From positions 1 through 64,000 of the forward strand of contig JAADGJ010000076.1 in assembly GCA_013152435.1 (NCBI GenBank): 64,000 nt of DNA, in the 5' to 3' direction. The stretch is from Chloroflexota bacterium. Its GTDB lineage: Bacteria > Chloroflexota > Anaerolineae > DUEN01. This document shows positions 1,824 through 29,400 of the stretch, one piece after another. The notes under the pieces were generated by a model, which saw only the letters and a program-made list of their open reading frames with translations, was not told where the DNA came from and did not search any database. Position numbers and translations under genes: made by a program. Every line of letters starts with the position of its first letter. Within the stretch, counting starts at the first letter, position 1.

Positions 1824-4700
<2,877 letters not shown>

Positions 4701-4758
4701 GAAGATAGCCTCCCCTCTTGTGCATGAGCGAACGCCGTCCATTTTTGCTCAACCATAC

Positions 4759-7700
4759 CTACTTTCCCTTTCCAAACACATCCACATACGCCTGCACCTG
4801 CCCCTCCAAATCCCGGTCGTAGCGAATGGTGATTACCCGGTAGCCCAGGTCGCGAAGGTCGTCGCGGATGCGCTTGTCCTTAGCCCTAACATCGGGCTGG
4901 TCGTGGGCGCTGCCATCGCAGAAAACGCAGGTGCGGGCGTCCTCATAGTAAAAGTCAGGGCGAGCCGGGTAGTCGGGAAGCTGTGGCTGGGCCTGGTCTG
5001 GTAGGCGGCGGCCGGTCTGATATAGATGGTCCAAGAAACGGCGCTCCAGGTCCGAGGCTGGGTCGGTGCGCTCCAGAAGCCAGCGATAATGGGCCTCGTA
5101 ATCCCGAGGGCCATGCTGCAACTGCACTTTGCCGGCTGCCAGACGCAACAAGATGTCCCGTACCTGGTGGCGGTCCAGCAGCGCGTGGTCCCACTGGTTG
5201 GTGTAGGAGAGCAGACAGTCGTAGCAGGCGCGGGCGCAGCCCTCTGGATCCTCAGGTGGACGCAGGTCGTGGCCGTCGGGGGTGAAGTGGCAGATCTCCA
5301 GGGCGGTGCGGGCAACCTCGGCCAGGGCGTCCGGGTCTTCGACCAGACGGGCCAGCACGCCCAGGCCACCCTCCGCCGCTTCCCAGATGAGGATCGAACG
5401 TCGCTCGCCCTCGCCGATGCGCTCGGCGGCCAGCTCCTGCTCGGCGATCTGGAAAGTGGCCTCGATGCCGCGCTGCAGGGCGGCCTGAAGGGTGGCCAGG
5501 AAAACCTCTCCCCACTCCCCCGCCGCCTCCGGCGGCATCCCCTCTCTCCTCTCCGCCGCGGAGAGGAGAGAGGGGAAAGGTTGTACGAGCAGAATGTTGC
5601 GCGTGTCACGCACCAGCAGACGCACGCCGCTCACGATTTCGGTTGCTTCGCCCAGCGGGTCATCATTGCGGTGTGCGTCGGGTCGGCGGGCCCAATACCC
5701 CTTGCGGACGTCGAGGTGAAAGCCGCGCTCATGAGAGCGACGCCAGCCGTGGTTCAACCGCCATAAGGTGGCTGCCGGCCCGAGGACCAGATGCAGCAGC
5801 GTTCTTCCCTCTGCATCTCGGGCTTCGGCCTCGTAACGACGGACGCCACCCGGCGCCGGAGCGAAGCGGAAGTGGCTGGTGATGCGGAAGCCCTCGCGCA
5901 CCCGCTCCTCTTCGTCACACGTGATGCGCTCCGCAGGCTGGGTGATGACGTCGGTCATCTCAAAGAATTGCGCGCTATAATCGCTGGTGTCCGCATCCAA
6001 TATCGCCCCGCAATGCTCGCAGATGTCTTGATCAGCGGCTGCGCCCTCGTGGAAGTAACCGCAGACCTTGCACAGCTTAGCGCGTACGAAGCGCTGGCTG
6101 ATATCGCCGCCGGGGATCTGAGTACGCACCACGCGATACTTGCGCCCTTCATGATAGAGCAGATTGCGTGGGCCAAACTCACTGATGGCCAGAAAGCGCG
6201 GCCGGGCGATGAATTCGCCCCCCTGACTCCCTGTGGAGATGTAGGCGCGAATGGGCAGGCGGGGGAAGTTGTAACCGGGCAGGAAGCCCTCGCTGGCCAG
6301 GTAGCGATAGGGGTAGAAATCCGACTCGCCGGCCCCCTCGAGGTTGCAAAGTAGGTCCTTCTGTCGGCGCGCCTCGCGCTCCAGGCGTTCTGCCTCCTGC
6401 CGCTCCTTGTACGGGACACGGGTCTGGTGGGTGCGGTCGATGAGAGCGCGCGCTTCCTGCAACTGACGGTCGGCAGCGGCGTACATCTCTCGCCAGCGGT
6501 CGAGGGCCTCGTCGAAGGAACGAGGCGCGTCGCGCAAGACCTGCCACAGCCACTCCTCCGAATACCACCCACCGCGGGTGATGTCGGGCTCGCAGGCTTG
6601 CAGCACCCGACGGCATTCCTCAAAGCAGGCCTGTAGATGGGCTTCTGAAAGCCGGGTGTAGTGGACGATATTCTCGTGCAGTGGGTAACCGGGGCTGCTG
6701 GTATCCAACACCTCGGTGATGGACTGGCCCAGGGAAATCCCGGTCTTGGCCAGCCAGATAGCGTGTACATGGGCCTGCACCAGCTCCTCGTTGCTCAGGT
6801 CCAGGCGTGGTGGCACTACCACGCCGGAGACCATGCGCTCGGGACGGCGGAAGAAGTATTGGTCGTGACCGCTGCCCACGGCGCAATAGGTAACGATGAA
6901 AGCCGGCTGGCCGCTACGACCGGCGCGACCACTGCGCTGAGCATAGTTGGCGGGCGAAGGGGGTACGTTGCGCATGTGTACCACGTTCAGATCGGCGATG
7001 TCGATGCCCAGTTCCATAGTTGGAGAGCAGAAGAGGCAGGCCAGCTCGCCTTTACGGAAGGCTTCCTCACGATGGATGCGGTCCTCGCGAGAGACTTGGC
7101 CAGTGTGCTCTCGGCCCTCCATAGGGCCGAGTCGCGCGGCCACTTCGCTGTAGAAGTTGCGGAAGAAAACGTTGGCCTCGCGCTCCAGCCTTAGATCTTT
7201 GGCAAAACGCATGCGGCGCGTGCGCACGGGGTCTGGCTCCGGCGGCATGCCATCTCCCCGCTGCCAAAGCAGGGCATCGGCCCGCAATTGAATAGCTTTC
7301 TTGTCATGGTCGTCGCGGAAGGTGATGTAGCCGGCGCGGCGCAGGATCTCGACCCAGATGGGCAGAAACTGGCGGTAGTCGTCCGGGGACATGGGGGCGG
7401 CGAGATCGGGCCAGGCTCGGCGGGAGCGCAGGAATCGTCCCAGGGCACTGCGCTCCGACAGGCTCATCTCGCCGTTACCGGCTCGGCCCTCGATGACGAA
7501 CCAGGTGGCTTCATGCAGACGCTCGTTCTCATCGAAAGTCCAGGGTTCCTTCAGGGCCTGATTGACCTGACGACGCAGCGCATCCTGGCGGTCGGGCTGA
7601 AGGCAAGCGGCGTCGATAGCCAAAGCACGGCGTAGGTGATCCAGGAAGGTGCGGATAACCCGTTTCCGCACCTCGGGGGACGCCGTCGCCAAGAGCGGAT

Positions 7701-9954
7701 GAGCCTGCCAGGGTGCGGGATCAGAAGCGAAGAGATCCAGGTCTACGTAGTCCACGCGCAGGAGGCCACATTGCTCCAGGTTAGGCTGGACGACACGCCA
7801 ACCCCGGCGCAAATCTTCGTAGATGCGGTACTCAATGAGGGCCTGAAGCGCTGCTCGATTGCGGCGCGAAAGGGTGCCGTATTCGCCGGCCTCCTTGGCG
7901 TAGACCTCCTGGGGAAGGGCCAACGCGTCGGTTACACGGGCGGCGATGACGGCATGATCCAGGGAATCGTCCTCGAGCAGGGCTCGGTAGATGGCAGCGC
8001 GCAGGAGCGCCACCTGAACGAAGTCGTTGAAATGGCCAGCCTGAAGCGAGGCATCCTGGCGGTTGTCGGTGAAACTGAGGAGTTTCTCCGCCTCCTTTTC
8101 CACGTCTGGCTGGCGGCGCAATTCGGCCACCGTGGAAAGGGCGAGCAGAGTCGTGGCCGTGCTGCGTCCCTCATTGGAGAGACGAGCTAGTTTACGGAAC
8201 TCCCCCTCCCGCTTGGTGTAGGCTACGCCGCAGTTGAGGCAGGTGAGAAAAGGGCGTTTGATGAACCAGACCGGGACCGGGCGGGGATCGGTCGAGTTTT
8301 CGTCGGGCAGCGCGTCGGCTACGCGGCCATCGGGGAAAACCCATAGGCGTTGGGGGATATGCTCGCGAAACTCCCTTTTCACACTGCGGCCCCGCTTGGT
8401 CTGGCGGAACCAGGTTTCGGGCAGATCTTCTTCGCGACTCTCGTCCCAGATGGGATCCTCTGGATCGTCCAACAAGAGGTAGCCCTCACGCACACTCCCA
8501 TCGTCCTCCTGTTCGGCCAGCACTTCGGGCACCAGGGGATGCACGCGACGGTTTTCGGTGTCCCAATAGGCCAGATAGTACTCCCGCCCGCACTCTCGGC
8601 AGAAAACCAGTGGGAAGAGGAGTCGTGTCTCTTGACGCCCGGGCGCGTAGTGTTGTCCTTCCAGAGTAAGATGACGACGGCCATGGGGTTCCAGGGTGGC
8701 GTACACCGAACCGCCCTGGGAGATGAATTGGTGCAGTTTGAAGGCAAAGACGGGATCGCCCTCGGGTGTGCGCACACGGCTGCCCAGGCGAAACATGTCT
8801 TCCAGGTAGGAGCGGCAGGTCGCCACCTCCAGGCCGGTGACCTGAGCCAGTTGCTGAGCCCCTTCCTCCAGCGTGATGGGCGTACGACGTTTGAGGTGGC
8901 CATTTTCCGCCTCCACGCCAAAGGTGCGCTCGATCCAGGCCGTGATGGGATGAGCGACAAAGGTGTGATAGTCGGCTTCGGGCAGACCTGCCTGGATGGC
9001 GGCCCGAAGCTTGTCCGGTGCATCATGATCGGAAAGCGACGCATGGTGGGTGATGGGGCGCAGGGTTTCGTCGATCACGTGCTCTGGGGAGATGGGGACG
9101 CCGAAGATCTTGGTGGCGACATCGGCCACAGCTCGACGACGTTCCTCGCGGCTGCCCCCCGCGGCCATGGTGGCGCTGGTGCCGACACAGAGGAGGTCCG
9201 GGTTGCCGCAGCGCTCGCGCAGGCGACGTATCAGCATAGCCACATCGGCACCCTGCCGGCCGTTGTAGGTGTGGAGCTCATCCAGGACCAGGAACTGCAG
9301 ATCGGCCACAGCGCGGTCCACGAAGACGCGCTCCTGGGGGCGGGTGAGCATGAGTTCCAGCATGACGTAGTTGGTGAGGAGGACATGAGGTGGGTCGTCG
9401 ATGATGGCCTGCTTTTTCTCCAGGCTCTCCTGGCCGGTATAGCGCTGGAAGTGGACGGGGAAATCGGGTACGTTGGCGGCCAGGCGGCGGACGGCCTCGA
9501 GCTGGGAGTTGATGAGGGCGTTCATGGGATAAACGATGATCGCCCGCACGCTGTGTCGCCCCGGATTGTTCTTGAGGACGTGATCCACGATGGGAATCAG
9601 GTAGGTCAGGCTCTTGCCAGAGCCGGTGCCGGTGGTGAGGACGTAGGGCTCACGGCGCTGGGCAATGCGCACGGCCTGTTCCTGGTGGTGGTAGAGGCGG
9701 AAGGATTGGCCTTTGTTGTCCACGAAGAAGCGGGCGCACAGGGGATGCAAAAGCCCTTCATCCACAAGCTCTTTGACCGTCCTGGTTTTGGGATAGGCCG
9801 GGTTGAGTTGTAGCAGCGGCTCGGGCCACAGCCGGCCCCGGCGCAGTTGTTCCTCGACGAAGGTGCGAATCCGCTCATCGGCGATGTTGAGGAAGCTGCG
9901 TACGTAGGCATTGTAGTCGGCCAAGACGTTCTGGTGGAGGGCAAAGGCGTCCAT
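4759..9954 (-). CDS. Giant DEAD/DEAH helicase with DUF1998 and nuclease-like C-terminus (DrmA/DrmB-like)
   Basis: 1731 residues. The Lhr/YprA-type (COG1205) helicase core has Walker A TTGTGSGKSLTYL near residue 107, a DELH box near 223, motif III GTSAT, and C-terminal helicase motif QRSGRAGRSGQ. Several CxxC pairs suggest zinc sites (CRECG, CLNCG, CKVCG with CEHCG). The DUF1998 signature CARACYDCLLSYTNQ lies near residue 1576. The last about 80 residues (PDFYY, then VFCDGSAHD, then GYRVITIRYD) resemble the Vsr/DUF559-type restriction-endonuclease fold. In DISARM, DrmA (helicase) and DrmB (DUF1998) are separate proteins, so this looks like a fused or MrfA-like equivalent; that equivalence is inference. 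An in-frame 37-bp palindrome (5539-5575) adds about 25 residues upstream of DUF1998. It sits between the PDDEXK_4 nuclease gene and the DrmD-like gene in one operon. Confidence 0.88.
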   Translation of the reverse strand: MDAFALHQNVLADYNAYVRSFLNIADERIRTFVEEQLRRGRLWPEPLLQLNPAYPKTRTVKELVDEGLLHPLCARFFVDNKGQSFRLYHHQEQAVRIAQRREPYVLTTGTGSGKSLTYLIPIVDHVLKNNPGRHSVRAIIVYPMNALINSQLEAVRRLAANVPDFPVHFQRYTGQESLEKKQAIIDDPPHVLLTNYVMLELMLTRPQERVFVDRAVADLQFLVLDELHTYNGRQGADVAMLIRRLRERCGNPDLLCVGTSATMAAGGSREERRRAVADVATKIFGVPISPEHVIDETLRPITHHASLSDHDAPDKLRAAIQAGLPEADYHTFVAHPITAWIERTFGVEAENGHLKRRTPITLEEGAQQLAQVTGLEVATCRSYLEDMFRLGSRVRTPEGDPVFAFKLHQFISQGGSVYATLEPHGRRHLTLEGQHYAPGRQETRLLFPLVFCRECGREYYLAYWDTENRRVHPLVPEVLAEQEDDGSVREGYLLLDDPEDPIWDESREEDLPETWFRQTKRGRSVKREFREHIPQRLWVFPDGRVADALPDENSTDPRPVPVWFIKRPFLTCLNCGVAYTKREGEFRKLARLSNEGRSTATTLLALSTVAELRRQPDVEKEAEKLLSFTDNRQDASLQAGHFNDFVQVALLRAAIYRALLEDDSLDHAVIAARVTDALALPQEVYAKEAGEYGTLSRRNRAALQALIEYRIYEDLRRGWRVVQPNLEQCGLLRVDYVDLDLFASDPAPWQAHPLLATASPEVRKRVIRTFLDHLRRALAIDAACLQPDRQDALRRQVNQALKEPWTFDENERLHEATWFVIEGRAGNGEMSLSERSALGRFLRSRRAWPDLAAPMSPDDYRQFLPIWVEILRRAGYITFRDDHDKKAIQLRADALLWQRGDGMPPEPDPVRTRRMRFAKDLRLEREANVFFRNFYSEVAARLGPMEGREHTGQVSREDRIHREEAFRKGELACLFCSPTMELGIDIADLNVVHMRNVPPSPANYAQRSGRAGRSGQPAFIVTYCAVGSGHDQYFFRRPERMVSGVVVPPRLDLSNEELVQAHVHAIWLAKTGISLGQSITEVLDTSSPGYPLHENIVHYTRLSEAHLQACFEECRRVLQACEPDITRGGWYSEEWLWQVLRDAPRSFDEALDRWREMYAAADRQLQEARALIDRTHQTRVPYKERQEAERLEREARRQKDLLCNLEGAGESDFYPYRYLASEGFLPGYNFPRLPIRAYISTGSQGGEFIARPRFLAISEFGPRNLLYHEGRKYRVVRTQIPGGDISQRFVRAKLCKVCGYFHEGAAADQDICEHCGAILDADTSDYSAQFFEMTDVITQPAERITCDEEERVREGFRITSHFRFAPAPGGVRRYEAEARDAEGRTLLHLVLGPAATLWRLNHGWRRSHERGFHLDVRKGYWARRPDAHRNDDPLGEATEIVSGVRLLVRDTRNILLVQPFPSLLSAAERREGMPPEAAGEWGEVFLATLQAALQRGIEATFQIAEQELAAERIGEGERRSILIWEAAEGGLGVLARLVEDPDALAEVARTALEICHFTPDGHDLRPPEDPEGCARACYDCLLSYTNQWDHALLDRHQVRDILLRLAAGKVQLQHGPRDYEAHYRWLLERTDPASDLERRFLDHLYQTGRRLPDQAQPQLPDYPARPDFYYEDARTCVFCDGSAHDQPDVRAKDKRIRDDLRDLGYRVITIRYDRDLEGQVQAYVDVFGKGK
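5522..5575. repeat. In-frame palindromic insertion in the DUF1998 helicase gene
   Basis: Two adjacent hairpins: 5522-5536 (GCCGCC/GGCGGC, 3-nt loop) and 5539-5575, whose 18-bp perfect arms flank a single central base. The segment translates in frame as a charged stretch (LLSAAERREGMPPEAAGEWG) that does not look like helicase or DUF1998 sequence. It resembles a protein-coding palindromic element such as those known in Rickettsia. Confidence 0.7.
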
Positions 9955-10010: not shown

Positions 10011-11204
10011 TTAGACGGTGATTGGCCACTCGATCTCGCTGATTGTCTTGCGAATAGCGGGTAGATCGTTGGCGAGAAATTTGCTCCACCCGCTCTTCAC
10101 CTTATCTGTAAGCACCTCAAAGTCGGACTCCTCGTAGTCCTTCTGACGGAGGAATTGTATTTTATAGATCGTGGTCCACTTAGGATAAAGGCGTTTAGAC
10201 ACTCCTCGGAATATTCGAGAATGACGTAACGCTGTCTGATGTAAAATCTGGCGTATGGAATCCGAACCAGGACCAATGACCAGGTTTAACGTCAGATGGT
10301 TTGCAGAATTCCTGAACTCAAAAAGCAGGGTACGTCCAGTAGACGTCCACCCTTGTCCACTTCGCAGCACAGGAACGTCATCCCATTCGACCAGCGCAAA
10401 GCGAACGTAACTTTTAGTAGAATGATCAAGAACGAGGCCTGCGTCTCTGTGCTCCCCAACCAACCCTTTGAGGTACTCGGCGATCTCCCATTGCAGGTCG
10501 GGGCGGTATTCGAAGATCAGGTCTAGGGCTCGCTTGTGACGACGGTAGATGCGGCGACAGAGTTCGGCGATCTCCGAGTTGCTCACGATGTGCCTCCTCA
10601 ACATGGCGGTGTAATGCTTCATCAACGTGGATACGTCCGCGCCCAGGGTGGACTCATGTGTTTCACGCACAGTGTTCGCCAGGTCGGCAATATCCCCATA
10701 ACTTAGGGGGATGTATGCTTCGTCAGAGGGCTCATCCCCCTCCGGAGTGAGATAAATAAAGAGGGCGCGGCGGTCGGGAAACTCGTGAGTGATGACCTCG
10801 CGATAACGAGACAACTGGCCCGATTGTTCTTTGGCGTCTACTTTGTTCTCGATGGTGCACACGAGACGATTCTCCGCATCGTGTACGAGGATGTCGATGT
10901 TGCGCCACTCACGCAGCACGATGGCGTCCTGCATATCCGCCACGTCGATCTCAATGACGCTGACAGGTGGATGGTCGGCGCGGATCAGCACGCGCTTGAG
11001 GAACCGCTTGAGGAAGGCGTCTCCCAACCCGTGGTTCTGGGAGGGATCCAGCAGAAAGGCAAGAAAGTCAGAATGACGCAGCTCCTGTCGCACCGCGCCC
11101 AGCGCCTCAAAGATGTTGAATTCGGCCAGGAGCGTCTCCAGGCGCTCCAGATCCTCATTGTCTACAACGAAGGCTTCCAATAGGGCTCGTTCTTTTGCGT
11201 TCAC
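10011..11204 (-). CDS. PD-(D/E)XK nuclease superfamily protein (PDDEXK_4-like)
   Basis: 397 residues. The N-terminal part (FNIFEALGAVRQELRHSDFL, then AFLLDPSQNHGLGDAFL) matches the usual start of PDDEXK_4 proteins. The catalytic-type motif is visible as REWRNIDILV followed by CTIENKVDAKEQSGQLSRY, giving D-x11-ENK plus a Q-x3-Y element. These proteins are found in defence islands and are presumed DNA nucleases. The remainder has no motif I recognise. The start is an ATG at 11204, 37 bp after the SNF2 stop, and 56 bp before the DUF1998 helicase start, so it is probably cotranscribed. In the inferred DISARM-like system it could supply the cutting function that DrmC is missing for; that is a hypothesis. 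Confidence 0.82.
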   Translation of the reverse strand: MNAKERALLEAFVVDNEDLERLETLLAEFNIFEALGAVRQELRHSDFLAFLLDPSQNHGLGDAFLKRFLKRVLIRADHPPVSVIEIDVADMQDAIVLREWRNIDILVHDAENRLVCTIENKVDAKEQSGQLSRYREVITHEFPDRRALFIYLTPEGDEPSDEAYIPLSYGDIADLANTVRETHESTLGADVSTLMKHYTAMLRRHIVSNSEIAELCRRIYRRHKRALDLIFEYRPDLQWEIAEYLKGLVGEHRDAGLVLDHSTKSYVRFALVEWDDVPVLRSGQGWTSTGRTLLFEFRNSANHLTLNLVIGPGSDSIRQILHQTALRHSRIFRGVSKRLYPKWTTIYKIQFLRQKDYEESDFEVLTDKVKSGWSKFLANDLPAIRKTISEIEWPITV

Positions 11205-11241: not shown

Positions 11242-13242
11242 TCACGAATTTCGAGCTTTGGGACGTGGTGGTTCTAAATCGAATAAGGCGAACAGCTCCT
11301 CATCCGTGATGAGTCGCTGGACTCCCTTCTCTGACAAGTCATCAATCACGAAGTTGAACAGACTCTCTTTCTTCCGTAATAGGCGGTAAATACGCTCCTC
11401 TATCGTATCCCTTGTGTAAATGTCGTAGACAAATACCACTCGCTTTTGCCCAATACGATGGGCCCGGCCTTCAGCCTGCCTGGCGATAGAAGGGTTCCAC
11501 CAATGATCGAAGTGAAAGACGTGATTGGCGCGGGTGAGGGTCAGGCCAACCCCTCCGGTTTGAACCGACATCAGCAGCACTTTGGGGCTATCCGTCTCTT
11601 GGAATGCTTGTATCAGTCGGATGCGCTCTCGATCATTCAGCGAGCCGTCAAACACGGCTGGATCAAACTTTTGCAATCTATGTTGTATACGCCGCAGAGT
11701 GACATTCGGAAAGTGAGAAAAAACGAGCGCTTTCTGACCCGCCTCTGTGATACTCTCGAGCTGGTCGAACAAATACTCCACCTTGCAGGATTCGCCCGTC
11801 TCGGGATCCAAGTTGCAGATCTGCTTCAATTTGTTGATCCAATCAAACACATGTACTCGTGTGATTCCGCCCCGAGATAGCTGAGATCGCGCCCTTTGAT
11901 ATTCACGATCATATAGTTCCCGTTGTCGTGGCGATAGTTCGAGCCATACCTCGTTGACCGTCTTCTTTGGAAGATCCTTCAAAACATCCACGGCTCGACG
12001 TCTCAAAATATACGGCCTAATCTTCTCTCTAACGTGAAATGGGGATACGATGGCAGATTCCCTGAACAGGGACGGCTGGAGATATCTGAAGATGGCGAGG
12101 ACATCCTCCAAACTGTTTTCCAGGGGTGTTCCGGATAGCCCCCACCTGTATGTGGCTTGGATTTGTCGAACTGCTCGGGCTTTCTTTGTACCAGGGTTTT
12201 TGATCTCTTGCACTTCATCAAGGATCACCACATCAAATCGCTGTTTCAGGTACGCCATGCGTGGGATGTCCTCACGCAATGTTTCATACGTCGTCAGGTA
12301 AATCGGTGCGGGTAGTTCCCATAACCACTCTCGCTCTTCGCGCGTCCCGCGCACCTTGATCACGAATAACTCCGGAGCCCATTTGCTCAGCTCGGTCTCC
12401 CATACGCTTAGGAGTGAACGTCTACATAGAATGAGAGCGCGTCGGATCTCACCACGCCGAAAGAGGACTTGCAGGGCCACGATGGCCTGTATCGTCTTGC
12501 CCAGTCCCATCTCATCGCCGAGCAGAGCTGATTTGTTTTGAGCGAGAAAGCGGATGCCCTTAACCTGATACTGATATGGACGGCGCTTCTTAGGGAAAAG
12601 GGCCGGGTTAGAGAGAAGCGTCTCGATGGGCGGTTGGAGATACGGCAGCAATAGATCGAAGACATCAAGGGTGCGAGGCTTTGTTGAAGCACCGTAGCCG
12701 TAAGAACGCGATCGGCCGGACCTGGTTCGCCTGCCAGCGAAAGGCGTCTGGATAGGCGTGCAGACGGCGCACATATATCTTGGCAGGCCATGCCGACAGC
12801 GCTCTTGAGCCGCAGGCGACGGTGGCGGCGGCGCCTCTTGATAAGCGGGCTCCTTGGCCGCCACGTCCTCACGAGCGTAGGCCTTTCCCGCACGACCGGG
12901 GAAGGTCAGCCCGGAGAACATGTCCAGGATGTCGGGAAATGGCAGGGAGAGACAGGCGCTCATGTCAAGGAGATCGATAGCCTTCGGCAGGATGAATCGA
13001 TCCCGACCGACAGCGGCGGCCATGACCTCCCGAGGCAACGCCAGGTCATCTAAGTGCATCCTTGCTTGCATAAGTGCCCCGTCGTCCGAGATGGGAGGTA
13101 TTTCCGGCAAGGGTATGTTTACACCGCCGGCCTCCAGCTTTTCCTTTAGATCTTCGGCCACCCAGGCGATGTTTATGGCAACGATCTTCGGCTTTGGAAA
13201 GGCAAATCTTGCTTTTAGCCGGGCTTGCAGCTTCCCTAACAT
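11242..13242 (-). CDS. SNF2-family helicase with N-terminal Cys-rich region
   Basis: 666 residues. The first about 200 residues are unrecognised and end with a possible zinc knuckle (CRHGLPRYMCAVC) and a basic RTRSGRSRSYGYG stretch. The SNF2 core follows: Walker A GDEMGLGKTIQAI, a DEVQ box (VVILDEVQEIKNP) in place of DEAH, motif III LSGTPLEN, and C-terminal helicase motifs including QTGGVGLTL and AEGRAHRIGQ. It therefore differs from the HepA-like helicase at 1824-4700 and is a second SNF2 enzyme of the same operon. The ATG lies 7 bp after the stop of a 44-residue ORF, with GAGGG in the gap as the ribosome site. Likely role: ATP-driven translocation on duplex DNA for the neighbouring nucleases (inference). 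Confidence 0.9.
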   Translation of the reverse strand: MLGKLQARLKARFAFPKPKIVAINIAWVAEDLKEKLEAGGVNIPLPEIPPISDDGALMQARMHLDDLALPREVMAAAVGRDRFILPKAIDLLDMSACLSLPFPDILDMFSGLTFPGRAGKAYAREDVAAKEPAYQEAPPPPSPAAQERCRHGLPRYMCAVCTPIQTPFAGRRTRSGRSRSYGYGASTKPRTLDVFDLLLPYLQPPIETLLSNPALFPKKRRPYQYQVKGIRFLAQNKSALLGDEMGLGKTIQAIVALQVLFRRGEIRRALILCRRSLLSVWETELSKWAPELFVIKVRGTREEREWLWELPAPIYLTTYETLREDIPRMAYLKQRFDVVILDEVQEIKNPGTKKARAVRQIQATYRWGLSGTPLENSLEDVLAIFRYLQPSLFRESAIVSPFHVREKIRPYILRRRAVDVLKDLPKKTVNEVWLELSPRQRELYDREYQRARSQLSRGGITRVHVFDWINKLKQICNLDPETGESCKVEYLFDQLESITEAGQKALVFSHFPNVTLRRIQHRLQKFDPAVFDGSLNDRERIRLIQAFQETDSPKVLLMSVQTGGVGLTLTRANHVFHFDHWWNPSIARQAEGRAHRIGQKRVVFVYDIYTRDTIEERIYRLLRKKESLFNFVIDDLSEKGVQRLITDEELFALFDLEPPRPKARNS

Positions 13243-17015: not shown

Positions 17016-18769
17016 TCAGAAAGGTAGTTCATAGTCCTCCTTCCAGGAGTCCAGGAATTCTTGTTCTTGGTCATCTTGTTGCTGGATCTGGTTCAGCATC
17101 GCAGCAGTCCGTCCTGTTACCAGAGACCGAATCTTTTTCTTCAATTCTTCAACTTTATCCCAGCCCTCTTCCGATCCAGACAACTCCTCAGCAACATGGC
17201 GAGCGACTATTGGCTTTGAATTTCCAAATTTCTCTCTGGCCTCGTCCTCCAACTCTTCGTACTGGTTGCCGAAAATAGATCGCATGCACCGTTCAAAATC
17301 GCCGCCAAAGACACAGTACCTATCTCTGATGAACCACTCGCTTGTCCCGGTTGCCTCTTCAATCTCTCTGATGCCCACACCTATAGTTTTGAGGGCGTCG
17401 CTTCTGTGGACCCCGTTCGGATCATCACTGGTGTCATTGTCGAACGTAATGTAAACCGTAATTCCATAGGCTGTGAATAGCCGCCACCACTTCGCCAGAT
17501 TGCCTTTTCCCATCACCGGGATGATTGCAATGCCTTCCCGAGTTACATCCAGCCCAACTCGACGCAAATAGACCGGAAGCGCAAGTGCTTCTGTTTGGCC
17601 TTCAACAAGGACAACTGCCTTGGCGAAGAAACCCGACAAGATCTCCTCGGTAGCATGAGTGGCGTAAAACGGGAGGATGGTATCTGCCGATGTCTTGCTG
17701 GAATTAGCCCCGTGCTCTATACAATAATGCGTTAGCTTCTCACGCGTGAGTTGATGGACATGTGTAGCGCCATTTTCATCTTTTCGCACGAGCACAAGCC
17801 CCTCCAAGTTGAGAATGTCAATGAAGGCGGGGCTGTGGGTAGTCAATATTACCTGCAGGCCGTCAGCACACATGCGTTTGATTTGCTGAGCAAGCCAGCG
17901 CTGGGCAAGCGGATGCAGGTGGGCTTCAGGTTCTTCGATCACCAAGATGATCCCACCGTAGAACGCTCGTGCATAAGCGTGGGCAAAGGCAAGGGCGAGA
18001 ATCTGCTCTTGCCCGGTGCCCAATTCGTCAAAAGTTCTTCTTTCGTCGCCTTCTTTAGGAACAACCCGAAGCGAATGGAAGAAGCGGCTCGGGTCATATG
18101 CAGAAAAGTCCACATGAAGGCCGTAAGACATACCTGCGAACATTTCGCCAAACTGCTGTGCGAGGCCTTCTTCAAATCTCGCGAATTCCTCCACCTCGTG
18201 AAAGATGGCTTCTAGGTCTCTGAACGCTGCTTTCAGTCGGTTCACTCGATCTGAGTCACTGGTTAGTACAGCGTGAAACTTACGCATGAGTTTTGAGAGA
18301 AAAGTGTACTTCGACGTGTAACTCAGTTGATAGCTGAGTCGTCGGTCAGCTCCTATGGTGATGAGCATCAACTGATTGCGGAGTTCGTTGCTCACATACC
18401 TCATGTCACCGTTGTCCAAATGGACGCGAAATAAAGGTTTTTCCTCACTGTTTGGCTCACACTTCCAAACAAGCGAGGAAACCGGTTCGTCAGTACGTGG
18501 GTGATGAACCCCAGTAAGTCCCACCTCAATCTGTATGCACCCCGTTTGACTATCCCTCTTCCAATAATCATGATCTTCCGGCTCCTTGGAGCCTGGCCAT
18601 GTTTCGCCCAGAATAACATCCAGTGCCGATACAATGTTCGACTTGCCTGCATTATTCTCGCCGATCAACACCAAGGGGCCGTTCTCGGGAAACTCAATGC
18701 GGATCTGATCACGGATGGACTTGTAGCCTTCGATGGTGCACCAGGTCAGTCGAGCCATTGGGAGGTCTA

Positions 18770-18773
<4 letters not shown>
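17016..18773 (-). CDS. OLD-family ATP-dependent nuclease (AAA ATPase plus TOPRIM)
   Basis: 585 residues. Walker A is GENNAGKSN near residue 37; an ABC/SMC-type signature region (FDELGTGQEQILALAFAHA) and Walker B ILVIEEPEAHLHP follow; the TOPRIM domain begins near residue 385 (AVVLVEGQTEALALP) with IPVMGKGN and a DxD-type motif in YITFDNDTSDDP. Both enzymatic halves therefore look intact. The start ATG overlaps the methyltransferase stop (ATGA), so the two are translationally coupled. No UvrD/Rep-like partner follows, so it resembles class 1 rather than Gabija-type OLD proteins. Known OLD enzymes nick or degrade DNA. In this operon it is a probable effector linked directly to the methyltransferase. 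Confidence 0.92.
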
Positions 18774-22956
<4,183 letters not shown>

Positions 22957-22960
<4 letters not shown>

Positions 22961-23235: not shown

Positions 23236-24507
23236 CTAATCAGGAAGGGCCCGAAAATCTACAGCTCGATAGGACCTTCGGTCGTATTTTCGGTCCCAGT
23301 TTGGCATTAACGCAAATTCCAGCCTCGCTCCCTTGTATCTGATTGCATCCGGCAGGTCATTCTGCAGGAAGAAGATCCGCTCGCCGTCGTCCGTTCGAAT
23401 CCAACCATGAGGTTTCCCCTGGGGCAGGGCTTCAACAATCCCCGCCTTCCGGGGTAGGCCTATGTAAACGCAGGCAGCCCAGTCGGCTTGGCAGAGGTGT
23501 GCGAGATCGCCTATGTCGTCTGTATCTACAGGCCAGTTCAGGCCGGCCTCTTCTAATGCGTGGCGAATCTCCGCCTCCAACCGTGCCAATCTGGGCCGGA
23601 TAGGCCATCTCTCACGTTGACGAACGGCTTTGCTCAGGGCTACCTGCCGGGCCGCGAGTTCCAGTTTGCCCAGTGACAGCCCAACTTGCCCTAACCGCTC
23701 GTATAGAGTTACCTTCTGTTTGTCTTCTCCGGGAGCTAAGGCTGCCTGGCAGCCGGCCCTCAAAGCCGCCTCTGCTTGTCCAATTCGCAGGTATAGCCCA
23801 CACAGGTCATTCCACACATACCAGTCGACTCGTCTCTTTAGTGTGAGCTCCTCCATCTCTGCAATCGCCTGCTCAATGTATCCCTGGCCCGCCAGAGCCA
23901 GGGCGGCCCAACGTGGAAAGTTCACCTCACGAGGATAGTGACGTGTTGCCTCTTGAGCCCAGCTTCGCGCTTCATCCCATCGTTGTAGCTGGATCAGGCT
24001 CTTTACCCGGGCAAAATACCATCGTTCCCGCATCGATTTGCCCCGGCGGCCTTGGATGAGTGGTGCTTCATCACTGAGTTCTGAGGGGGCGATTCGATCG
24101 CACCAATCTGCAACGATCTCCCACTCCTGTTTCTTTTGGGCCACCGTCCACACGGCCTTAATCGTCGAACGCAATGGCGCATCCTCCGCACCCAGCGCGA
24201 GAATGGTCTCGCCAGCCTTAAGCAGAGTCCTGAGATCTCCTCTTTGTTGAGCGGGTTTGACGTATGCGTCGTAATGGGCCCAAATCAATTCGCGGCGAAT
24301 CCATATGTTTCCCGGAAACTGATCTAGCGCTTTCTTGCCAACTCGGCAGGCTGCCTGAGGATGGCCAGCCTTGCGCAGACAGTGGATGTACCTACTTGCC
24401 GCGAATGCGCTGCCGGTCTCGTCCCAAAGCTCGTGGAAGAGCTTCCCTGCCTCGGGGTACTTTCCAGCTTTTAGTAGATCCATAGCGGCTGTAAAGCGAT
24501 CATTCAT
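23236..24507 (-). CDS. TPR-repeat protein with cold-shock-like C-terminus
   Basis: 423 residues. Residues about 1-330 are helical repeats with TPR-type spacing (LLKAGKYPEAGKLFHELWDE, QLQRWDEARSWAQEA, LRIGQAEAALRAGCQAAL). After a linker the C-terminus reads AGIVEALPQGKPHGWIRTD then DGERIFFLQNDL, close to the RNP1/RNP2 pattern of cold-shock OB-folds (GxGFIxxxDGxDIFFHxSDL). Such domains bind single-stranded RNA or DNA. It follows the RNase HI gene by 5 bp on the same strand and so is the third member of that operon. Proposed role: nucleic-acid binding and scaffolding for the helicase/RNase H proteins (inference). Confidence 0.8.
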   Translation of the reverse strand: MNDRFTAAMDLLKAGKYPEAGKLFHELWDETGSAFAASRYIHCLRKAGHPQAACRVGKKALDQFPGNIWIRRELIWAHYDAYVKPAQQRGDLRTLLKAGETILALGAEDAPLRSTIKAVWTVAQKKQEWEIVADWCDRIAPSELSDEAPLIQGRRGKSMRERWYFARVKSLIQLQRWDEARSWAQEATRHYPREVNFPRWAALALAGQGYIEQAIAEMEELTLKRRVDWYVWNDLCGLYLRIGQAEAALRAGCQAALAPGEDKQKVTLYERLGQVGLSLGKLELAARQVALSKAVRQRERWPIRPRLARLEAEIRHALEEAGLNWPVDTDDIGDLAHLCQADWAACVYIGLPRKAGIVEALPQGKPHGWIRTDDGERIFFLQNDLPDAIRYKGARLEFALMPNWDRKYDRRSYRAVDFRALPD

Positions 24508-24512
24508 GACGT

Positions 24513-26489
24513 CTATCGATGGTTGCTGTTAGTATGAGCGATAAAATGAGCCAGTGCGACCCCTTGCTGCTCCTCTGGCAGGCAGGGCGATCGAAATCGC
24601 ACTCGTCCGGCGGTACGCTGTTCCGTCAGCCGCCGTGCCCACTCTTCATTGCCGCTGGGTTTCATAATCAGTTCCAGGGGCCAGGTAACAGGCAAACTGA
24701 GCTGTCCGGCGTTTTGAGCAACGGCTTCGCACAGCCACCGATACAGGAAGTCCAATTGGTTTCCCAGCTTCTGAGCCTCCTGACGCCATTCATCCCCTGT
24801 CCATCTGGCGACCTGCAAAATGGCATGCTTTCGGACACGACTCAAGACGTGCTCGCTTTCATATGGGGAGATGCCCCGGACATTGCTCCAGTCCCAGGCG
24901 GTTGCCAGGAACTGGGCTTGCGGCGTCAGAGCCAAAATAGCGATGCACAGATTGCCGTCGCCGTCCTGGGTATAGGAGGCACACCAGCGGTCGGGATGGC
25001 GACGGGCGTTTATCAAGGCCGCCCAGATCTTGCCCTCAAGATCTTCCTCGGGGGCTATTCGCCAGGCTTCGGGCGTCAGAACGCCGATCGGCTTCGTCTG
25101 TGTTTCATCTCGTACGAGCAGATAACGCCCGATCTGTTCTCCGCTCCAACCGGGCAACCGGTGACTGATCAGCAGAGCCCATAGGTAACCGCACGTCTCC
25201 CGATCCCATTGAGGAGAGCCGATTGAGGGTTGCTCTATTACAGTCAGTTGTGCATCGAGCCAGGCTTCCTCGGCCTGCAAGAGCTTTCTCCAGGCTTCCA
25301 CATCGCTGTCGGTCCAGCGCCCCTGACGTTGGACTTTCCCGCTTACGTAGGCTTCAATGATCGCGCGACCGCGCCTCAGCCGGAAGCGAGCATCCGGGTG
25401 TGTGATGGGCTCGGGCATGAAGCCAGCCTGTGTGAGCAGACGCTCTGCTTCCAGCAGGAACCGGCGAGGAAACCACCAAGCGTGAGGCGTATCGGTTTTT
25501 GCTGGCTCGTCTGTTGAGGGCGTAAGTACCGAGAGCAAGGCTTCAGGCGATAACCCCCATTGTGTTACCGTGGCGATCTCATCGTGTATAGATTTGCATT
25601 TTCGAAATCGCGCGCCGGACACGCCGTGGACGCGCGTTTGACATTGCTCCCAGGTGGTGTGACGTGCCACCTGCCCGTTGACCAAGCTCAGATAGGTGAC
25701 GCCTTGCGGTCGCTTGATGCGTTGGGCAATGGCCTGATCTGGGAAAGAGGGCTGGTCTCCGTCTCTGGCTTGCGATCCCTGTCCTTGTGGGGGGCTTTCC
25801 AGCGTGGCGAGCGAATCAGGTGTAAGCCCCCAGCGGGTGACAGCGGCGATTTCCTCTTCGAGAGATCGACACTTCTTGTAGCGTGCCCCGGGCACGCCGT
25901 GGGTTCGACGTCGACACTCTTCCCACGTCGTATGACGGGCCAGGATGCCGTTTACCAGGCTCAAATAGGTGACTCCCGAAGGTCGTTGAACTCGATGTTC
26001 GCCGAGCGCTGCGCGATACTGGCCCTTCGGCTCATAGAGGATATGAGGGACGGGTGAAGCAGTAAGCCCTTTGCCTGAAGCATAGGCTTGTGCTAGGGCG
26101 TTGACCCGTTCGTTTTCCGGATGGCCCGAGTGTCCTCGCACATGTTCCCAGGTCACACGATCGCCTGCGAGCCGGTCCAGCTCCTCCCAGAGATCTCGGT
26201 TCTCTACGGGCTTACCGCTTGCTGTTCGCCACCCTCGTCTTTTCCACCGGGCTAGCCACTCCGTCATACCCTTGAGCAGGTACTGACTATCTGTGACGAT
26301 CTTTACCGGCTCATCGGGTGGAACGCGGCGCAAGCCTTCAATAGCGGCCTGCATCTCCATGCGGTTGTTGGTTGTCTCGGGCTCGTGGCCGCCGATCTCC
26401 TCTATCTCATCTCCCCGAACGATCAAGGCTGCCCATCCCCCGGGGCCGGGGTTGCCGCTGCATGCCCCATCGGTGATGATGCGAATCAT
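24513..26489 (-). CDS. RNase HI fused to two viroplasmin-like hybrid-binding modules and unknown C-terminal domain
   Basis: 658 residues. RNase HI domain at 1-135: ITDGACSGNPGPGGWA (first Asp), NNRMEMQAA (Glu), IVTDSQYLLKG (Asp), VRGHSGHPENER. The fourth carboxylate, Asp134 in E. coli, is replaced by Asn (ERVNALA). Two copies of a 44-residue module follow (GVTYLSLVNG...RHTTWE..C, then VxGxxGARxKKC...EEI), the viroplasmin/RNase H1-type domain that binds RNA-DNA hybrids. The remaining about 350 residues are unrecognised. The ATG at 26489 overlaps the upstream stop (ATGA); a longer frame to 26834 would overlap the helicase gene by 350 bp and is rejected. Likely acts on RNA-DNA hybrids with the upstream helicase. 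Catalysis is uncertain because of the Asp-to-Asn change, though the E. coli enzyme is known to tolerate some substitutions there. Confidence 0.9.
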   Translation of the reverse strand: MIRIITDGACSGNPGPGGWAALIVRGDEIEEIGGHEPETTNNRMEMQAAIEGLRRVPPDEPVKIVTDSQYLLKGMTEWLARWKRRGWRTASGKPVENRDLWEELDRLAGDRVTWEHVRGHSGHPENERVNALAQAYASGKGLTASPVPHILYEPKGQYRAALGEHRVQRPSGVTYLSLVNGILARHTTWEECRRRTHGVPGARYKKCRSLEEEIAAVTRWGLTPDSLATLESPPQGQGSQARDGDQPSFPDQAIAQRIKRPQGVTYLSLVNGQVARHTTWEQCQTRVHGVSGARFRKCKSIHDEIATVTQWGLSPEALLSVLTPSTDEPAKTDTPHAWWFPRRFLLEAERLLTQAGFMPEPITHPDARFRLRRGRAIIEAYVSGKVQRQGRWTDSDVEAWRKLLQAEEAWLDAQLTVIEQPSIGSPQWDRETCGYLWALLISHRLPGWSGEQIGRYLLVRDETQTKPIGVLTPEAWRIAPEEDLEGKIWAALINARRHPDRWCASYTQDGDGNLCIAILALTPQAQFLATAWDWSNVRGISPYESEHVLSRVRKHAILQVARWTGDEWRQEAQKLGNQLDFLYRWLCEAVAQNAGQLSLPVTWPLELIMKPSGNEEWARRLTEQRTAGRVRFRSPCLPEEQQGVALAHFIAHTNSNHR

Positions 26490-29400
26490 CGGTGGCCTCC
26501 GTGAGAGACGACCTCTTCCCAAGCAGGCCAATCGCGACTTTCCAGGCATTTCTGCCCCAGTGCTGTTAGTCGCCAGATGCCTCGATGGCACCAGACCAGC
26601 CCGTGTCGCTGTAATCCCTGCAGGTACGACTGCAAGCGGTCCTTGTGGGCCAGATGACTTCCCTGTATGCGCATCAGCGCGTAGTTGAGAAAGTCTTTTT
26701 CTGGCTGATCGTTGTCCTCTAGTAACGAGAACAGCACTGCCTCTACTGGCTGCAGAGCCGAGCGGAAGCGTAGGCGAGACCCCTGATCCAACCAGGGGTG
26801 GCCGAGCCCCCGTGCCACCTGGCAGACATCGCAACAGGGATCAGCGGGCGGTGGAGTCTCGTCCGGGCTCAGGGCAGACACAAGCCGTGAGCGACGGCAG
26901 CCTGTATCGTCTTCTAGGAAAGCGACCATCTGATCCAGCTCGGCGATCGCTCGTACTCGTTCCTTTGCTAGGACTTCTGTTATGTCTTTGTGGAACTCGG
27001 GGCCCGGGGCCAGCCAGACATATCGGGAACTGCCCCTGAGCCTCCACCAATTGTGCTGGACTCCTGTGCTTATCAGAGCCTCGGCGGACAGGCATGTTTC
27101 CAAATCCGCTCCACTGGCAGCCCGATAGTAAAGCTCACCGGGATCTTGCAGGGACGGAAGCCATGCTTCGATCAATTCTCGTTGGTCGTCGGGCAGTTCG
27201 TCCGGCGGTTCTGATGGACAACTCCACCCGCGTGCAAGTACGGCCTGAGCGATGACTTCGTGGAAGTAGATCATCCCGGCGTTAGCCAGTAATTCGAGCG
27301 CCCGACGTAGCTTACGTTGAGCTTCCCATCGCTCTCCACCGATCCGTTCAATTAACACTTCTTCCGGCCAGAGGCTGCCCTGCTCAGACACAAGGCTCAA
27401 GACGCGGCGGAGAAGGTCCTCCTGAAGCGAAGACTTCTCCTGGAGAAGTTCGTGTTGTCGGCGGTCTCGGGCATCATAAAGCGTCAAAGCCAGCGCTCGT
27501 TGGGTTGGATCACGACCGGCTCGGCCTGCCTGTTGGTAGTACTCTGTGAGGCTCTCCGGATGGTTATAGTGAATGACCATGGCGACTCGACGGTTATTGA
27601 TCCCCATACCGAATGCCTTGGTCGCGACGATGATCTGGAGATCCTCTGGGCCATTTTCAAAGCGTCCGAGGATCGCCTCTCGCTGTGGATTGTCCATTTT
27701 GCCATGGTAGGCGGCCGCCCGAAAGCCAGACCGAATCAAGCCATCTGCCACTTGTTCACATGTGCGCGTGAACGTCGTGTAAACGATCGCTTGGTTATGG
27801 TGGGGAAGGGTGGAAAGGACTTCCTGGAGCCTGCGATCTCGATCCTCCCAACTTTCTGGCATGATGTCTACGCCCCAGTAGATATTGGGACGATCAATGC
27901 GACCGTGGATTTCAATGGGATCACGCAGGCCCAGGTATTGGCACAATGCCTGTCTGTGTTTCTCGGTCAGTGTGGCTGAGCAAGCCATGATGGCTACGTC
28001 GGCCCCTGCGCGTTCCCGCCAGTCGCGAATCCTCTGGGCCAGACGCAGGTAAGCCGGACGAAAGGTTGTCCCCCAGGTGAGCAAGCAGTGGGCTTCGTCC
28101 AGCACGATGCGGCGTACTCGTAGTCGATGGAAGAGGGCAAAGTCAAAGCTTGCCATCTCAGGTGTCAAATAGAGCAACCGCAAGTGACCATCTTCAGCGA
28201 GCTGACGCACGCGGGCGCGCTGCCGACGATGCTGAGCATCTCGTCCCAGAAGGTAACCGGCCTGGTCTGGTACGGGCACCCCGGCCTCTTTGAGATCATC
28301 GATCTGGTTTTGGATCAGCGCGCGTAATGGAGAGAAAACGATGGTTAACCCTTCGGGCGCTGTCAGGGCTGGTACCTGGTAACAAAGGCTTTTGCCTCCA
28401 CCAGTAGGCATCGTCAGCAACACGTCGCGTCCTTGGGCAAAGGCTGCCATCGCCTTCAGCTGTGCCTCGTTTCGGCGGTAACCTTCTCCGACCAACTTCT
28501 GAGCCGCTTCTTCGAGAACTTTCTCTTGTTCATGGATAGATAGCCGATCATCCAATATCGGAAGTGGCGCCTCTTGTGGAAGCCATGGCCGCTCAACGAT
28601 GTCCAACACCTCGGCGTGTTCTCCCTTCGCGGCGAACTCGGCCCATGCGCGCACCAACTCCTCCGGTGTGTTACAGAGGATACACGCCGGCGCCCCGGTG
28701 GGACCGGAGGGCAGAGCCTGTCGGAAGGCGTGCGCGTAGTTCGAGCTTGCCGCGCGGCGATCCAGACAGATGACCACGCCCCGGCTCGTGTGATCCCGGA
28801 TCAATCGGCCCACTCCCTGTCGCCAGCGCAGCAAAGCCAACGGCAGCAGATAGTGCCGAAAGGCACCACCCTGCTCGCCGGGATGTTGACGTTCGACCCA
28901 TAAGCTACGCGCCTCAATGATCGGCTCGCCGGCCGCAGGAAAGGGGAGCCGGACAACGATGACAGTGCGTAGGCTGTGTTCTCCGGATAGGTCCACTCCC
29001 TCCCAAAAGCTGCTTGTGCCAAGTAGTATAGCCGCTTTACCTTGCTCCAACAGGGCCCTGTACCTCTCGAGCAATCGGGCTACAGGGCTGCCTGGATATT
29101 GGCGCAGTAGGTGGATAAAGGGATTCGCCTTCAGATCATCCTGATGGAGCGATTGCCCGAGAGCGTCGGTCAGAGCAGACAGATGACGGTGGGACGTGAA
29201 GAGAACCAATCCCCTGCTTGGCGCATTGCGGAGCACGGTCAGAAGCTCGGCGTGAAGCTCATGAAGGTATTGCCCTTCTTCCGGATCGGATGGGCTGCGG
29301 GTCGGCTGGCGGAATAGAACTCGCATCTGGTGGGGATAATCGAACGGTGAAGGACGTGACCAGACGGTGACACGATCTGGATCGGTAAGTCCTAGCCTCT

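What the first reader, a model, noticed from the sequence alone, without database searches (positions are those of the whole stretch)
4759..5000. Nuclease-like tail on DUF1998 helicase
The C-terminal PDFYY...VFCDGSAHD...GYRVITIRY order resembles Vsr/DUF559 domains. A helicase/DUF1998/nuclease chain would combine unwinding and cutting, and could replace DrmC.
Basis: inference. Interest (0 to 1): 0.5.

Follow-up and report, generated by a model that had tools for sequence, protein, structure and literature searches.

The report
Defence helicase with a nuclease tail

Summary
The last 115 residues of the 1731-aa YprA/DruE-type helicase (window 4759-9954, minus) form a Vsr/DUF559-like PD-(D/E)XK domain. 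A confident model (pLDDT 94.8) matches homing endonuclease I-Bth0305I (Z 9.7) and Vsr bound to DNA (Z 8.8). The DISARM reading needs changing: the gene sits beside a RapA/DrmD-like helicase and in one cluster with a DrmMI/PglX-like methylase. That trio is ARMADA, described in 2025 (PMC12458937), whose YprA helicases are reported to carry a predicted active C-terminal Vsr nuclease. So the fused domain probably does the job of a separate nuclease, but in ARMADA type I, not in DISARM. New here: a related branch (22 rows) lacks the catalytic residues, and a separate PDDEXK_3 gene sits between the other two ARMADA genes in 7 of 13 such loci against 1 of 35 others. This hints at nuclease exchange, but shared ancestry weakens it. 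Nuclease activity is untested.

The parts
4759..9954 (-). YprA-family helicase (ArmC/DruE-like), 1731 aa, with C-terminal Vsr-like domain
   Evidence: ORF; Pfam DEAD, Helicase_C, MZB; PADLOC best DruE3
4762..5106 (-). Vsr/DUF559-like PD-(D/E)XK domain, residues 1617-1731
   Evidence: model pLDDT 94.8; VIA-align Z 9.7 to 3r3p, 8.8 to 1cw0; profile matches
5044..5046 (-). E1637, likely catalytic/metal residue (role inferred)
   Evidence: conserved position
4954..4956 (-). D1667 of PDF, likely catalytic/metal residue (role inferred)
   Evidence: aligned with the PDF of Vsr; conserved
4903..4917 (-). D1680-G-x-x-H1684, likely catalytic/metal residues (role inferred)
   Evidence: aligned with DGxxH of 3hrl; conserved
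5212..5490 (-). MZB zinc-binding domain (DUF1998), residues 1489-1581
   Evidence: Pfam PF09369, E 4.8e-08
6910..7119 (-). Helicase_C (RecA2), residues 946-1015
   Evidence: Pfam PF00271
9163..9690 (-). DEAD (RecA1), residues 89-264
   Evidence: Pfam PF00270
1824..4742 (-). RapA/DrmD-like SNF2 helicase, next gene downstream (ArmA-like)
   Evidence: PADLOC DpdE/DrmD/BrxHII models and NCBIfam DrmD; homologues beside yprA in relatives
18770..22960 (-). DrmMI/PglX-like DNA methylase (ArmB-like); seven genes lie between it and yprA
   Evidence: PADLOC DrmMI 824 bits; only such match in this genome; homologues in relatives

Best explanation
The gene encodes the YprA-family helicase-nuclease of an ARMADA type I anti-phage system. 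Shown here: helicase, DUF1998/MZB and a Vsr/DUF559-like PD-(D/E)XK domain in one chain, helicase motifs and a likely metal-binding set (E1637, D1667, D1680, H1684) intact, and a RapA-like helicase and a PglX/DrmMI-like methylase in the same strand-coherent cluster. Inferred: methylase and RapA-like helicase set the self/non-self rule; the YprA motor loads on foreign or replicating DNA with single-stranded parts and moves along it; the tail nicks or cuts it in a metal-dependent reaction. One chain thus does what a helicase plus a separate nuclease does in DISARM.
For: Domain calls; sequence-profile kinship to Vsr/DUF559 nucleases; confident model and fold matches; conserved acidic/His set; RapA and methylase homologues, both present in 42 of 68 relative loci, many of which are contig pieces; tree that puts the window with Y-R-M loci, apart from ARMADA II ArmC and Druantia III DruE; published rule that ARMADA YprA carries a predicted active Vsr domain (PMC12458937).
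Against: The methylase lies seven genes away, and the order M...Y-R was seen in only 2 of 42 relatives. Foldseek gave no match at E 0.001 or better, and mitoribosomal proteins score Z 8.7 next to Vsr. Relatives without the catalytic set exist, so the tail is not always needed as a nuclease. Activity and phage defence were not tested.
Confidence: 0.82

Rival explanations
1. The tail has the nuclease fold but is no longer a nuclease; it binds DNA or a partner, as the predicted inactive Vsr domains of Druantia I and II might.
For: Inactive Vsr tails are reported for Druantia I/II (PMC12458937), and 22 related rows here form a branch without the catalytic set.
Against: The window itself keeps the whole E-D-D-H set, and 51 of 84 rows do; D68, D81, G82 and H85 of the tail are invariant in A1, whose 30 rows were however chosen as intact.
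Confidence: 0.15
2. A DISARM variant in which the fused domain replaces DrmC.
For: Shared DrmD-like and DrmMI-like genes.
Against: Helicase and DUF1998 are one chain; DrmA models score only 46.5 bits or less against 342 for DruE3. The set of genes is that of ARMADA, which is reported to share these two genes with DISARM.
Confidence: 0.04
3. A Druantia III-like DruE that has swapped its PLD domains for a Vsr domain.
For: Best PADLOC model is DruE3; Vsr tails are reported in some Druantia III-like proteins (PMC12458937).
Against: Two DruE III references stand on the other side of a 100* branch; partners are rapA and methylase, and no DruH was named among the scanned genes. PADLOC-DB 2.0.0 (2023) is older than the ARMADA description, so it may have no nearer label.
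Confidence: 0.05

Closest known systems
ARMADA type I (PMC12458937)
   Same: YprA helicase with C-terminal predicted active Vsr domain, RapA/BrxHII-like helicase, PglX-like methylase
   Different: Methylase lies upstream with seven genes between (M...Y-R) instead of the usual Y-R-M or reversed R-M-Y; a PDDEXK_4 gene (PDC-S26) and a second SNF2 gene stand in between
ARMADA type II (E. coli, L119)
   Same: YprA helicase with E, PD and DG motifs in a Vsr-like tail, SNF2 helicase, methylase
   Different: Type II ArmC is longer (2113 aa), stands apart in the tree, and type II has a GajB-like helicase gene, not seen among the genes scanned here
Druantia III DruE
   Same: Same helicase family; helicase with a C-terminal nuclease part
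   Different: DruE III has two PLD domains (PMC13192584) and pairs with DruH; the window has a Vsr-like domain and other partners
DISARM (DrmA/DrmB/DrmC)
   Same: SNF2 helicase and methylase homologues; helicase plus DUF1998 plus nuclease
   Different: DISARM splits helicase and DUF1998 into two genes and uses a separate PLD nuclease
Vsr endonuclease and I-Bth0305I
   Same: Fold and weak sequence profile kinship
   Different: Those are sequence- or mismatch-directed enzymes; here the domain is the tail of a helicase, with DGxxH as in DUF559 instead of Vsr's HG motif

Membership tests
ARMADA type I | YprA helicase with C-terminal predicted active Vsr-type domain | tested here: met
ARMADA type I | RapA/BrxHII-like helicase gene in the operon | tested here: met
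   1824-4742, 17 bases after yprA
ARMADA type I | PglX-like methylase gene | tested here: met
   18770-22960, same strand, seven genes between
ARMADA type I | Usual gene order Y-R-M, or R-M-Y in many archaea and cyanobacteria | tested here: not met
   Window is M...Y-R; seen in 2 of 42 relatives. The paper calls the order general, not strict, for type I, so this is not taken as exclusion
ARMADA type I | CxxC pairs between RecA1 and RecA2 (beta-barrel zinc module) | tested here: met
   C452-C455 and C572-C575 invariant in 12 sequences; the barrel itself was not modelled
ARMADA type I | BrxA-like helical domain after RecA1 | not tested
   no structure of that part was predicted
ARMADA type I | Phylogenetic place in the type I clade | tested here: inconclusive
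   groups with Y-R-M loci, apart from ArmC of type II and DruE III; quick tree, no named type I reference from the paper
ARMADA type I | Anti-phage defence | not testable with these tools
   needs an experiment
DISARM | Separate DrmA and DrmB genes | tested here: not met
   one chain
DISARM | PLD nuclease DrmC | tested here: not met
   no PLD family in 13 scanned genes of 1824-32218
Druantia III | DruE with two C-terminal PLD domains | tested here: not met
   tail is Vsr-like
TALON | YprA with an RNase H-fold tail, and a NERD nuclease gene | tested here: not met
   tail is Vsr-like; no NERD among 13 scanned genes, though a TPR-CSD gene is near
PD-(D/E)XK, Vsr/DUF559 group | Restriction-endonuclease-like fold | tested here: met
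   Foldseek alone not significant
PD-(D/E)XK, Vsr/DUF559 group | Acidic/His active-site set | tested here: met
   E1637, D1667, D1680, H1684 present; all four in 51 of 84 rows
PD-(D/E)XK, Vsr/DUF559 group | Metal-dependent DNA cleavage | not testable with these tools
   needs an assay

The most novel reading that the evidence does not exclude
ARMADA type I exchanges its nuclease. In a branch related to the window's, the fused Vsr domain has lost its catalytic residues while helicase, RapA and methylase persist, and a free-standing PDDEXK_3 (GxxExxY) nuclease has taken a fixed slot in the operon and supplies the cut in trans. The window, with an intact Vsr and another PD-(D/E)XK gene (PDC-S26) beside it, would show a side-by-side state.
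Probability: 0.22. Interest if true: 0.5.

Novelty: new member of a known kind. Interest (0 to 1): 0.3.

Why it matters
It places a wide group of proteins annotated only as 'DEAD/DEAH box helicase' (relatives in 63 of 400 sampled genomes of the window's phylum) with ARMADA type I and names the residues to mutate. The ARMADA mutants in the text I read do not touch the nuclease, so whether the Vsr tail cuts, and whether the branch that lacks its residues still defends, are open and directly testable.

Tried and rejected
DISARM with DrmC replaced: rejected on gene content and model scores. Idea that the PDC-S26 nuclease next door replaces a dead tail: rejected; the window tail is intact, and neither phmmer nor blastp found a PDC-S26 relative in the loci searched. 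The first structure job (132 aa, four sequences) was poor, pLDDT 61, and its fold search gave nothing of use. Foldseek on the good model gave no match at E 0.001 or better; the fold call rests on VIA-align, sequence profiles and motifs. A viral-contig scan with the single protein found no relative; with alignments it gave seven loci and some of the same contigs again plus one more. Check for a dispersed repeat behind the insert in the methylase ORF: no second copy in the genome.

Limits. The 30 tails of A1 were chosen as intact; degenerate tails, the long tail of L027 and two further intact rows (L033, L040) were left out, so counts on A1 do not measure how common intact tails are. That comes: 84 rows, 51 strict E-D-D-H, 33 not. 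Of the 33, L097 and the L158 piece have no tail letters, and L057 (GDDH) and L172 (EDNH) differ at one place. Rows L101, L167, L168, L171 and L174 were dropped before that count as duplicates or pieces. Plasmid rows L120 and L124 also lack the residues but are not among the 84. In E. coli ArmC the His of DG..H is one place further on. In the count 7 of 13 against 1 of 35, L171 was left out because its tail is missing, and L098, whose PDDEXK_3 gene lies beyond the methylase, counts as without. The trees are quick LG+G4 trees without bootstrap.

Full report
What is there. Pfam finds DEAD (residues 89-264), Helicase_C (946-1015), MZB, the zinc part of DUF1998 (1489-1581), and a weak DUF559 (1667-1713, E 0.023). 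The best defence-model match is DruE3. The helicase motifs TGTGSGKS, LDELH and RSGRAGR are intact.

The tail. In 30 relatives chosen with intact tails, 26 match DUF559, 22 MTES_1575 and 5 Vsr at E 1 or better. A profile of them finds 3hrl (endonuclease-like), 3r3p (I-Bth0305I), 1cw0 and 1vsr (Vsr) as its four best PDB sequences, E 0.0016 to 0.19. A first model with four sequences was poor. A model of residues 1617-1731 with eight sequences reached pLDDT 94.8 and pTM 0.87. VIA-align matched it to 3r3p at Z 9.7, to Vsr bound to DNA (1cw0) at Z 8.8 over 93 residues and 2.6 A, to 3hrl at 8.1 and to 1vsr at 7.7. Mitoribosomal proteins score Z 8.7 in the same list, so the fold alone does not show activity, and Foldseek itself gave nothing at E 0.001 or better. 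The likely metal and catalytic set is E1637, D1667, D1680 and H1684; that this is the catalytic set is inferred by analogy with Vsr and DUF559.

The system. The next gene downstream is a RapA/DrmD-like helicase (1824-4742). Upstream on the same strand, with seven genes between, is a DrmMI/PglX-like methylase (18770-22960), the only such match in this genome. In 68 relative loci from plasmids and genomes, 48 show the RapA homologue, 43 the methylase and 42 both, although many loci are contig pieces. Among the 42, the order is Y-R-M in 30, R-M-Y in 10 and M-Y-R in 2. This trio is ARMADA (PMC12458937; parts 1-5 of 8 of the text and a term search read, supplement not read). The paper says that ARMADA I and II YprA proteins carry a predicted active Vsr domain, and shows anti-phage activity for type II. 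An E. coli plasmid locus with Zorya, Druantia III and ARMADA II genes in a row gave references. In a quick tree the window sits with Y-R-M loci, apart from ArmC of type II and from two DruE III proteins. I file it as ARMADA type I with an unusual gene order.

How it probably works. Inferred: methylase and RapA-like helicase set the self/non-self rule, the YprA motor runs on foreign DNA, the tail cuts it. [quoted passage not shown] start of abstract, passages).

A twist. Not all relatives keep the nuclease. Of 84 rows, 51 have the strict E-D-D-H set. A branch of 22 rows related to the window's, from the class of the genome G061 (Chloroflexia by its plasmid member Chlorohelix), lacks it; support is 86, and was 97 for the first 13 rows. 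At least five changes are needed on the tree. Two of the 33 rows without the set simply have no tail sequence. In this branch a PDDEXK_3 gene lies between rapA and methylase in 7 of 13 loci where both genes are visible, against 1 of 35 elsewhere. In the 158 held genomes of that class, 8 of 114 PDDEXK_3 copies lie within 15 kb of a yprA gene (read), where about 0.3 were expected from rough estimates. The single copy of genome G150 is among them. The counts share ancestry, so the p-values overstate the case; 6 of 13 loci have no such gene in the slot. The text of the ARMADA paper has no 'GxxExxY' or 'PDDEXK', and a library search for GxxExxY with nuclease gave one paper, on an algal virus (listing only).

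Verdict. A correct reading, from raw sequence, of a nuclease tail; the combination itself was published in 2025. New member of a known kind, with a modest lead on nuclease exchange.

Noticed in passing
window 23236-32218, minus: TPR gene that matches the TPR-cold-shock model, an RNase H protein and a DinG-RecQ double helicase stand just upstream of the ARMADA cluster; they look like a TOTE-type system, and TOTE parts also occur in TALON.
   Followed up: no
window 17016-18773, minus: OLD/GajA-like ATPase-TOPRIM nuclease between the methylase and yprA.
   Followed up: no
window 10011-11204 and 11242-13242, minus: PDDEXK_4 gene of the candidate defence family PDC-S26 and a second SNF2 helicase directly upstream of yprA; not found beside yprA in relatives.
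   Followed up: partly
window 21041-21493: The methylase ORF has an insert of about 160 residues (positions about 480-640) that relatives do not match; it has no second copy in the genome.
   Followed up: partly
L027:6202-7170: One relative carries a further Schlafen AlbA_2 domain after the Vsr-like tail.
   Followed up: partly
L103, L105, L108, L109: IMG/VR contigs hold full-length relatives with Vsr-like tails, so these systems travel on elements called viral.
   Followed up: no
L078, L080, L082, L086, L088, L092, L093, L100: A second group of relatives keeps both Asp of the tail but lacks the His of DG..H, a separate and milder change.
   Followed up: partly
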